Assembly (NCBI GenBank): GCA_913040765.1
Contig: CAJWIA010000017.1
Coordinates: forward strand, 1-13,628
Direction of reading: 5' to 3'
Origin: an uncultured Anaerolineales bacterium
GTDB lineage: Bacteria > Chloroflexota > Anaerolineae > Anaerolineales > UBA11657
DNA length: 13,628 nt
Of the stretch, positions 1,989 to 3,782 are shown piece after piece; positions within the stretch are counted from its first letter, which is position 1; every line of letters starts with the position of its first letter. The notes under the pieces are model-generated. The model ran no database searches. It was not told the origin of the DNA and saw nothing but the letters and a program-made list of their open reading frames with translations. Position numbers and translations under genes: made by a program.

Positions 1989-2231
1989 ATGAAAATGAAT
2001 ATTGAAATTATCTATTGCTCATCTTGAAACTATGCTCCGAGAGCCACCAGTCTGGTGGCCGACATTTTAGATGAGTTTCAGACAGTAGTTGAATCCATTA
2101 GACTTGTGCCTTCAACCGGTGGAGTATTTGAGGTAAGTGTAGATGATGAGATAATTTTCTCTAAGAAAAAACTCGAACGACATGCTGAACCTGGCGAGGT
2201 CATTGATATATTTCGCAACATCATTGCATAA
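1989..2231 (+). CDS. SelW-like Rdx-family selenoprotein with in-frame TGA (Sec13)
   Basis: Reading from the ATG at 1989 with the TGA at 2025-2027 taken as selenocysteine gives an 80-residue protein ending at a TAA (2229-2231). Its start, IEIIYCSSU-NYAPRA, places Sec13 at the second position of the CxxC/CxxU redox motif (Cys10) of the SelT/SelW/SelH (Rdx) thioredoxin-like family. The rest also fits that family: LVADILDEF, then VPSTGGVFEVSVDDEIIFSK (41-59 region), then a Glu/Gly-containing tail AEPGEV and a short last helix. Small cytoplasmic Rdx proteins are thought to be thiol or selenol oxidoreductases; the substrate is unknown. A hairpin that fits a bacterial SECIS lies at 2043-2059. An alternative start is ATG 1995. 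No clear SD is seen. The gene ends 27 bp before trpS and may share its transcript. TGA is a normal stop elsewhere in the window, so this is recoding rather than a different code. A Cys-to-TGA nonsense mutation is the main alternative, but the hairpin and intact downstream frame argue against it. Confidence 0.88.
2043..2059 (+). promoter_or_regulatory. Bacterial SECIS-like hairpin downstream of the Sec TGA
   Basis: GCCACCA (2043-2049) pairs perfectly with TGGTGGC (2053-2059), leaving the loop GTC (2050-2052). The loop begins 22 nt after the TGA ends. Bacterial SECIS elements lie inside the coding region just after the UGA, with an apical loop about 16-37 nt downstream and a G among the first two loop bases; this hairpin meets all of these. 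It is also one of the few GC-rich stems in an AT-rich region. In the known mechanism SelB binds such a loop and delivers Sec-tRNA to the ribosome. No selA, selB, selC or selD gene is in the window. Confidence 0.8.
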
Positions 2232-2258
2232 TCAAGAAAATTATCTAAGAAACAATAA

Positions 2259-3245
2259 ATGAGTGAGAAAGGTAGAGTATTTTCTGGGGCTCGGCCAACC
2301 GGCAGGCAGCATCTGGGCAATTATCTGGGTGCAATAAGAAACTACGTTGATCTGCAAGAAGACTACGACTGTATATACTGCATCGTAGACCTTCATGCTA
2401 TGACTACACTTGAAGAACTGCAGAACATAAAGCCAAACACTGCAGAAATGGCGCTTGACTGGCTAGCTGCAGGACTACGACCGGAAGATACCATTCTATT
2501 TGCTCAAAGCCATGTGCCCCAGGTTACAGAGCTACATACTATTCTCAGTATGTTTACTCAACTTGGCAAGTTGACTGATCTACCTACCTTTAAGGACAAG
2601 GTACGCTTACAACCACATAACGTCAACTATGGACTGGTAGGATACCCAGTACTTATGACAGCAGACATCACTCTGTATAAGGCTGATATTGTTCCGGTAG
2701 GTGTTGATCAACAATCTCACATCGAATTTGCAAGAGAAATAGTACGCACCTTTAACTATCGCACCAAACGCCAGGTGCTTATCGAACCACAAATGAAAAA
2801 TACAGACTTTCCAAAGGTACTAGGTACAGATGGAAAGAAAAAAATGGGTAAAAGTGAAAGTAATCACATCGAGTTAGCTCTCACACCCGAAGAAACCAAT
2901 AAAGTAGTGAGCACCATGGTGACTGATCCACAACGTGTGCGGCGCACAGATCCTGGCAACCCAGAAGTATGCAACGTATTTACATTACACAAATATTTCT
3001 CTAATGCTGATAAAGTGTCGACTATCGATGCTGAATGTCGCAATGCTGACATAGGTTGCGTAGATTGCAAACGAATGCTGTCAGACGAACTAAATGAACA
3101 TCTGGGACCTTTTCGAGAAAGGCGCGCTGAACTAGCTAGAAATCCGCAATATATTTGGGATATTCTGCATGACGGAGCAGATCGCGCTCGGACAATTGCT
3201 AGCAAAACTATAGCAGAAGTTAAGTCGGCTACTGGCATAGCATAG
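2259..3245 (+). CDS. trpS: Tryptophanyl-tRNA synthetase, probable [4Fe-4S] type
   Basis: A 328-residue class Ic synthetase that charges tRNA-Trp with tryptophan using ATP, in the cytoplasm; the length is normal for bacterial TrpRS. The HIGH-like motif is in PTGRQHLGNYLGA (13-25), PVGVDQQSHIEFAREI lies at 146-161, and the KMSKS-like motif is KMGKS (195-199). In the C-terminal anticodon-binding region the cysteines C238, C260, C267 and C270 form C-x21-C-x6-C-x2-C. That is nearly the spacing of the [4Fe-4S]-binding TrpRS described from Thermotoga maritima, so an iron-sulfur cluster near the anticodon site is likely. No good SD precedes the ATG. The gene starts 27 bp after the SelW-like gene, and dtd follows at 75 bp, so the three may form a loose unit. 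Confidence 0.96.
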   Translation: MSEKGRVFSGARPTGRQHLGNYLGAIRNYVDLQEDYDCIYCIVDLHAMTTLEELQNIKPNTAEMALDWLAAGLRPEDTILFAQSHVPQVTELHTILSMFTQLGKLTDLPTFKDKVRLQPHNVNYGLVGYPVLMTADITLYKADIVPVGVDQQSHIEFAREIVRTFNYRTKRQVLIEPQMKNTDFPKVLGTDGKKKMGKSESNHIELALTPEETNKVVSTMVTDPQRVRRTDPGNPEVCNVFTLHKYFSNADKVSTIDAECRNADIGCVDCKRMLSDELNEHLGPFRERRAELARNPQYIWDILHDGADRARTIASKTIAEVKSATGIA

Positions 3246-3320
3246 TCACGCTTCAACTTAGATGTTTCTATATTTCGGAAATATCAATAATCGAATACGT
3301 GCGAATTCATAAGTACAACC

Positions 3321-3782
3321 ATGCGACTTCTTATACAACGCGTAAGTAAAGCTAGCGTATCTGTAGCAGATACAATTGTCGGAAAAATTGACAAGGGATT
3401 ACTTGTTTTAGTTGGTGTTGGACAAAAAGACAGTAAGTCTGAAGCAGAGTGGTTAGCTCGAAAAACAGCGCAACTAAGAATATTTGCTGATGCAAATGGA
3501 AAAACGAATCTGTCTCTATCGGAGGTGTCCGGCGCTGCGCTAGTAGTGTCGCAGTTCACACTTTATGCTGACACACGCAAAGGACGTCGTCCATCATTTA
3601 TTAATGCTGCAACTAGTGATATAGCAGAACCTTTGATCGAATACTTCGCCAAGCAACTTGAGGGATATGGCATACCAGTAAAACTCGGTAAATTCGGTGC
3701 AGACATGCAAGTTGCACTAGTAAATGATGGGCCAGTTACTATCTGGATGGAACATAATAGTAAGTCAAAGTCAGTCAAATAA
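3321..3782 (+). CDS. dtd: D-aminoacyl-tRNA deacylase (DTD)
   Basis: A 153-residue protein, the usual length of the homodimeric DTD family. It begins with the typical [15 protein letters not shown] and carries the catalytic-site motif SQFTLYAD (77-84), GRRPSF, GKFGADM (123-129) and the second signature NDGPVT (135-140), which contains the Gly-cisPro pair that excludes L-amino acids. DTD hydrolyses D-aminoacyl-tRNAs, and Gly-tRNA mischarged on tRNA-Ala, to protect translation, in the cytoplasm. It follows trpS by 75 bp on the same strand, a sensible neighbour functionally. No SD is visible before the ATG. Confidence 0.95.

What the first reader, a model, noticed from the sequence alone, without database searches (positions are those of the whole stretch)
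1989..2231. Overlooked SelW-like selenoprotein gene with UGA read as selenocysteine
Seen: an 80-codon frame with one internal TGA exactly at the second Cys position of the CxxC redox motif (C10-S-S-U13), with intact family sequence on both sides (GGVFEV ... IFSKKK) and a TAA stop 27 bp before trpS. Standard gene calling breaks it and instead proposes a spurious antisense ORF. Known: Rdx proteins (SelW, SelT, SelH) often use Sec at this position, and bacterial members are known from marine metagenomes. Inferred: the host decodes Sec and so must carry selA/selB/selC/selD elsewhere.
Basis: partly seen in the sequence, partly recalled or inferred. Interest (0 to 1): 0.85.

Follow-up and report, generated by a model that had tools for sequence, protein, structure and literature searches.

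The report
Selenocysteine-containing SelW protein gene
A small redox protein gene that gene callers tend to cut short is very probably a genuine selenoprotein gene, in which a stop codon is read as selenocysteine; the protein family is already known, but the gene is common in one bacterial order, where it sits directly in front of a tRNA synthetase gene.

Summary
Window 1989-2231 is an 80-codon Rdx/SelW gene (Pfam PF10262) with one in-frame TGA at codon 13, the fourth position of CxxU. It is not an error or a decayed gene: 5 of 5 genomes of the genus carry the TGA, as do 143 of the 150 best Rdx matches listed from 400 genomes of the order. The window's own genome has SelA, a full-length SelB and a SelD that itself contains an in-frame TGA. 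Its tRNA-Sec was not found; in 3 of 5 congeners it sits beside tRNA-Phe and tRNA-Cys, a cluster with no match in this 77%-complete assembly. A hairpin with an NGU pentaloop follows the TGA in 81 of 86 homologues, against a mean of 13 (maximum 22) under synonymous recoding and 0 of 7 Cys forms. Bacterial SelW selenoproteins are in print since 2005, so this is a new member of a known kind. Not met in my paper searches: selW directly precedes trpS in 32 of 32 long-flank loci, and three congeners carry a SelW paralogue with a lone UGA.

The parts
1989..2231 (+). selW: 80-codon Rdx/SelW selenoprotein gene, ATG to TAA
   Evidence: TGA form in 5 of 5 congeneric genomes
2025..2027 (+). in-frame TGA read as selenocysteine (U13 of C10-S-S-U13)
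   Evidence: an in-frame TGA in 143 of the 150 order-level matches listed
2043..2059 (+). bSECIS-like hairpin: stem GCCACC/GGUGGC (2043-2048 with 2054-2059), pentaloop AGUCU (2049-2053); the minimum-energy fold also pairs 2049 with 2053
   Evidence: hairpin with NGU loop in 81 of 86 homologues
2055..2231 (+). 58-codon sense fragment (GTG start inside the hairpin) of the kind held in the protein database
   Evidence: P0014, P0021
2259..3245 (+). trpS, conserved downstream partner of selW
   Evidence: TrpS motif downstream in 32 of 32 long-flank loci of the order

Best explanation
1989-2231 encodes a small thioredoxin-fold SelW/Rdx oxidoreductase. SelB, bound to Sec-tRNA-Sec and to the hairpin just after the UGA, delivers selenocysteine at codon 13, giving a C10-x-x-U13 redox site. 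Shown by calls: the frame, the conserved TGA, the family match, the hairpin conservation, and the selA, selB and selD genes. Inferred: actual Sec insertion, and thiol/selenol redox function with a small-thiol or thioredoxin-type partner (family knowledge). It lies directly upstream of trpS and is probably co-transcribed with it (inferred from gene order).
For: Rdx match. TGA in 5 of 5 congeners and 143 of 150 listed order matches. Purifying selection: window versus L003 dN 0.042, dS 0.32; codons 1-12 alone give 3 synonymous and 1 non-synonymous change. SelA 5 of 5, SelD with in-frame TGA 5 of 5, SelB over cut-off in 4 of 5 including own genome. In 400 order genomes Rdx and SelA co-occur: both 228, Rdx only 11, SelA only 107, neither 54. 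In 11 hand-picked assemblies of 1-2 contigs, tRNA-Sec(tca) is present in 7 of 7 with SelW (6 TGA forms, 1 Cys form), while in 4 of 4 without SelA and Rdx the best Rfam match is a tRNA-Ser. Hairpin with NGU pentaloop in 81 of 86 TGA homologues; synonymous-recoding null mean 13.1, maximum 22 in 500 replicates; 0 of 7 Cys homologues. Codon +8 after the UGA is NGY in 86 of 86 although the residue varies (Ser, Gly, Arg) and Ser elsewhere in these genes is TCN in 220 of 281.
Against: tRNA-Sec not found in the window's own genome or in G001. RNAalifold over all 86 sequences gave only a 3-bp stem, which I put down to two mixed hairpin registers; I defined the registers and the criterion after seeing the data. 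Same-amino-acid column shuffles average 62 of 86 (maximum 72), so only part of the signal is covariation between columns. The window hairpin alone is modest (z -1.88, 8 of 200 shuffles as good). 11 Rdx-positive genomes had no SelA match: 8 are under 90% complete, but G006 (which has the TGA form), G264 and G376 are 93-95%. A TGA form was not seen in the one further selenoprotein family checked (Prx). No expression or protein data.
Confidence: 0.96

Rival explanations
1. The TGA is an assembly or sequencing error, or the gene is a decaying pseudogene.
For: One TGA in an otherwise intact frame in a fragmented assembly of 259 contigs, 77% complete.
Against: TGA form in 5 of 5 congeners and 143 of 150 listed order matches; dN/dS about 0.13 between window and L003.
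Confidence: 0.01
2. UGA is read as tryptophan throughout the genome (code 4/25 type reassignment).
For: 12 database clusters carry W at codon 13.
Against: 4 of the 11 complete window genes checked end in TGA and their frames are open under table 11; the Cys homologues have Cys, not Trp, at this site; SelA, SelB and SelD are present.
Confidence: 0.01
3. UGA is read through, but Cys or another residue is inserted in much of the protein, for example when selenium is short.
For: 7 Cys homologues exist, so Cys is tolerated in this fold.
Against: The hairpin is kept in 81 of 86 TGA forms and met the criterion in 0 of 7 Cys forms; Sec synthesis and decoding genes are present. Partial misinsertion is not excluded.
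Confidence: 0.02
4. Only the 58-aa downstream ORF (GTG at 2055) is translated.
For: Such fragments are in the protein database.
Against: It lacks the first strand and the motif. The [YF]C-x-x-[UC] motif was found in 94 of 97 loci read, and many homologues have no start codon at that place (for example GCG in L061, ACG in L066).
Confidence: 0.01

Closest known systems
Bacterial SelW-like selenoproteins (CxxU) of the Sargasso Sea and GOS surveys (PMC1088965, PMC2398784; passages read)
   Same: Family, CxxU motif, in-frame UGA, and (Sargasso paper) bacterial SECIS with a G in a small apical loop
   Different: The passages read do not assign those reads to this lineage; here host genomes, Sec genes and the trpS neighbourhood are seen. 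No difference in kind. I did not compare the sequences themselves.
Solved bacterial SelW-related proteins (PDB 3dex, 2fa8, 2p0g, 2oka, 2obk, 2ojl)
   Same: Sequence family
   Different: The window protein has Sec at the second motif position; that the solved ones have Cys there is recalled, not checked
E. coli fdhF bSECIS (recalled, from no call)
   Same: Short stem and small loop; 14 homologues here have loop GGUCU, which I recall as the fdhF loop
   Different: Window loop is AGUCU; 26 relatives fit only a register 4 nt nearer the UGA

Membership tests
Rdx/SelW family (PF10262) | Profile match over the curated cut-off along the whole domain | tested here: met
   62.8 and 70.8 bits versus 22.6, positions 1-73 of 74
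Rdx/SelW family (PF10262) | CxxC or CxxU redox motif after the first strand | tested here: met
   C10-S-S-U13
Bacterial selenoprotein | In-frame TGA aligned with Cys or Sec of homologues, frame conserved on both sides | tested here: met
Bacterial selenoprotein | bSECIS hairpin directly after the UGA | tested here: met
   81 of 86 homologues; window 6 of 6 pairs, loop AGUCU. Criterion set after seeing the data; bSECISearch not available
Sec-decoding organism | selA, selB, selD in the same genome | tested here: met
   selB 633 aa
Sec-decoding organism | tRNA-Sec gene in the same genome | tested here: inconclusive
   Not found in own 77%-complete assembly; present in G002, G003, G004 by Rfam and ARAGORN; the neighbouring tRNA-Phe and tRNA-Cys also gave no match in G000
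Bacterial selenoprotein | Selenium in the purified protein | not testable with these tools
   needs 75Se labelling or mass spectrometry

The most novel reading that the evidence does not exclude
selW is more than a neighbour of trpS: because the two genes are usually contiguous or overlapping in this order (62 of 73 loci within 30 nt, 27 of 73 overlapping or abutting), translation of tryptophanyl-tRNA synthetase is coupled to successful UGA decoding in selW, so that TrpRS output follows selenium status.
Probability: 0.06. Interest if true: 0.75.

Novelty: new member of a known kind. Interest (0 to 1): 0.35.

Why it matters
It gives host genomes for SelW selenoproteins of the kind that marine surveys found most abundant, shows that this gene is easily truncated in annotation across one bacterial order, and offers a natural series (Sec forms with two hairpin registers, Cys forms without the hairpin, a lone-Sec paralogue) for testing what a bacterial SECIS needs. 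The selW-trpS pairing is a functional lead for a family whose role is unclear.

Tried and rejected
RNAalifold on all 86 downstream regions together gave only a 3-bp stem; separating two registers explained this. A contig of G000 (C178) that matched a flank of the tRNA-Sec cluster held no tRNA by ARAGORN, so the gap in G000 could not be placed. Peroxiredoxin (PF00578) was checked as a further selenoprotein family: no TGA copy among 24 listed matches in 5 genomes. The viral collection gave no relative of the paralogue. In one search the Rfam tRNA-Sec cut-off was passed by tRNA-Ser in 3 genomes (G063, G086, G026), so the best-match loci were checked with ARAGORN. A whole-genome selenoproteome survey was not done. 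In one search loci L008 and L009 were first read on the wrong strand (corrected); locus L105 was cut out of frame (re-framed, left out of the codon pools and). L006, a distant type, was left out of the 86-sequence hairpin counts. Papers looked into by word search without a mention of SelW: PMC5029168 and PMC12013277.

Full report
WHAT IS THERE. Window 1989-2231 (+) is an 80-codon frame from ATG to TAA with a single internal TGA at 2025-2027, codon 13. With TGA read through, the product matches Pfam Rdx (PF10262) over positions 1-73 of 74 with 62.8 bits (genome search) or 70.8 bits (protein scan); the cut-off is 22.6. It is the only Rdx match in this genome at E <= 0.001. The motif is C10-S-S-U13. 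Six solved bacterial relatives were found by sequence, among them 3dex, 2fa8 and 2p0g. The gene lies between an MscS-type channel gene (802-1857) and trpS (2259-3245).

THE TGA IS CONSERVED. All 5 genomes of the genus have a TGA-form copy. In 400 genomes of the same order, 239 have an Rdx match; of the 150 best matches listed, 143 have an in-frame TGA (one also a TAA) and 7 have no stop (further matches were not shown). I read 97 loci (9 from the genus, the 30 best of the order, and 58 picked by hand, with all 7 listed forms without a stop included): 87 have C-x-x-U, 7 have C-x-x-C, 3 are a paralogue. Between the window and L003, dN is 0.042 and dS 0.32. Database proteins are often broken here: of 59 clusters, 12 are 58-61-aa sense fragments (the two read begin after the TGA) and 12 are full length with W at the site; I read 23 of the 59. 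UGA is not a general Trp codon: 4 of the 11 complete window genes checked end in TGA.

THE MACHINERY. SelA: 5 of 5 congeners. SelD: 5 of 5, each with one in-frame TGA; in the window's genome the context reads SCAGUAGKLGPQ, so SelD is itself a predicted selenoprotein. SelB: over the curated cut-off in 4 of 5, and a full 633-aa frame in the window's genome; G001 gave only partial matches below the cut-off. tRNA-Sec: over the Rfam cut-off and called by ARAGORN with anticodon tca in G002, G003 and G004, not found in the window's genome (77% complete) or G001. In the three genomes it sits beside tRNA-Phe, tRNA-Gly and tRNA-Cys; a 701-base query covering that cluster found no match to the Phe or Cys parts in G000, so the cluster is probably missing from the assembly. 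This is an inference, not proof. In 11 hand-picked assemblies of 1-2 contigs from the order, tRNA-Sec was present in 7 of 7 that have SelW (6 TGA, 1 Cys); in the 4 without SelA and Rdx the best Rfam match was a tRNA-Ser. Across 400 genomes, Rdx and SelA: both 228, Rdx only 11, SelA only 107, neither 54; leaving out 8 weak SelA matches the numbers are 226, 13, 101, 60. Three Rdx-only genomes (G006, G264, G376) are 93-95% complete.

THE HAIRPIN. After the TGA the window RNA folds GCCACC-AGUCU-GGUGGC (2043-2059). Of 86 TGA homologues (L006 left out as a distant type), 45 have this register A only, 26 have only a register B shifted 4 nt towards the UGA, 10 fit both and 5 fit neither, under the criterion of at least 5 of 6 pairs and a pentaloop with GU at positions 2-3: 81 of 86 in all. 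Random synonymous recoding from the same genes' codon pool gave a mean of 13.1 and a maximum of 22 in 500 replicates; shuffling codons within columns and amino acids gave a mean of 62 and a maximum of 72. The 7 Cys homologues gave 0. L006, tested apart, has 6 of 6 pairs but loop AGGGU and fails the criterion. The codon 8 places after the UGA is NGY in 86 of 86 (AGT 40, GGT 22, AGC 13, GGC 9, CGC 1, CGT 1), although Ser elsewhere in these genes is TCN in 220 of 281 cases. The registers and criterion were set after looking at these sequences; RNAalifold on the pooled set found only a 3-bp stem, and the window hairpin alone is modest (z -1.88).

GENE ORDER. In 32 of 32 loci of the order with long flanks, a TrpS N-terminal motif follows selW, including three Cys forms; a dtd-like start follows in 24 of 32 within about 1.5 kb; an MscS motif was seen upstream in 3 of 32. 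With short flanks counted in, the TrpS motif was within reach in 74 of 93 loci; the 19 misses had 82-132 nt downstream. In 12 loci from other groups it followed in 0. Over 73 loci the distance from selW stop to trpS start has a median of 5 nt; 27 overlap or abut (15 at -4) and 62 are within 30 nt; the window has 27 nt. The script took the most upstream in-frame start within 16 codons of the motif, so gaps may be underestimated. Paper searches: SelW with trpS and selenoprotein, 0 papers; selenoprotein W with tryptophanyl-tRNA synthetase, 1 review, seen in the listing only.

A LONE-SEC PARALOGUE. G003, G004 and G001 carry a second, diverged SelW (L007, L008, L009): [MV]-K-[PF]-T-[IV]-[QE]-[IL]-L-F-U-N-...-KATSLVA[DE]IL. 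The CxxU loop is collapsed to a single UGA. The Gly-Gly segment has become TAC or PAC followed by [ND][RK]EFEV, so a Cys appears in a loop that I would expect near the active site (inference; distances could not be measured). dN is 0.079 and dS 0.477 between L007 and L008, but those two do not differ before the UGA, so that part is informed only by L009. The hairpin is kept, with 5, 5 and 6 of 6 pairs and loop AGUUU. Sixteen metagenome clusters are related; one is full length with W at the UGA, and the Cys is present in 15 of 16. The flanking genes are shared between G003 and G001. The model of L007's protein, with Cys for Sec, folds as Rdx (pLDDT 90.7, pTM 0.81; the best PDB matches include SelW-related proteins at TM 0.83). 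Whether the U corresponds to C10 or U13 of SelW is open: MAFFT aligns it with C10, the following Asn and the hairpin favour U13. A 2026 review (PMC13188914, passages seen) lists the SELENOW-like family with CxxU.

KNOWN OR NEW. SelW-like selenoproteins with CxxU were reported from the Sargasso Sea (48 sequences) and GOS (427 sequences, most widespread together with SelD) (PMC1088965, PMC2398784; passages). A 2006 survey lists 3 selenoproteins in Chloroflexi (PMC1794560; passages). The search for SAR202 with selenoprotein found 0 papers, and Anaerolineae with selenoprotein 6, none naming SelW in its title (listing only). These searches cover only the open-licence library.

Noticed in passing
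L007 1462-1701; L008 and L009 (minus strand): SelW paralogue in 3 of 5 congeners with one conserved UGA but no CxxU, a kept hairpin, and a Cys in the former Gly-Gly loop; 16 related metagenome clusters.
   Followed up: partly
window 1989-3782 and 32 long-flank loci of the order: selW is followed directly by trpS in 32 of 32 long-flank loci, often overlapping, and a dtd-like start follows in 24 of 32.
   Followed up: partly
L037 (own genome, selD): SelD has an in-frame TGA in 5 of 5 congeners, so it is a predicted selenoprotein too.
   Followed up: yes
L059, L062, L068, L091, L092, L093: Order members with Cys in place of Sec fail the hairpin criterion although their genomes still have a SelA match.
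   Followed up: partly
L006 1501-1707 (G001): A third SelW type (C-E-K-U) in one congener, with a 6-bp hairpin but loop AGGGU.
   Followed up: no
26 loci, e.g. L144, L116: The SECIS-like hairpin lies 4 nt nearer the UGA while keeping an NGU pentaloop.
   Followed up: partly
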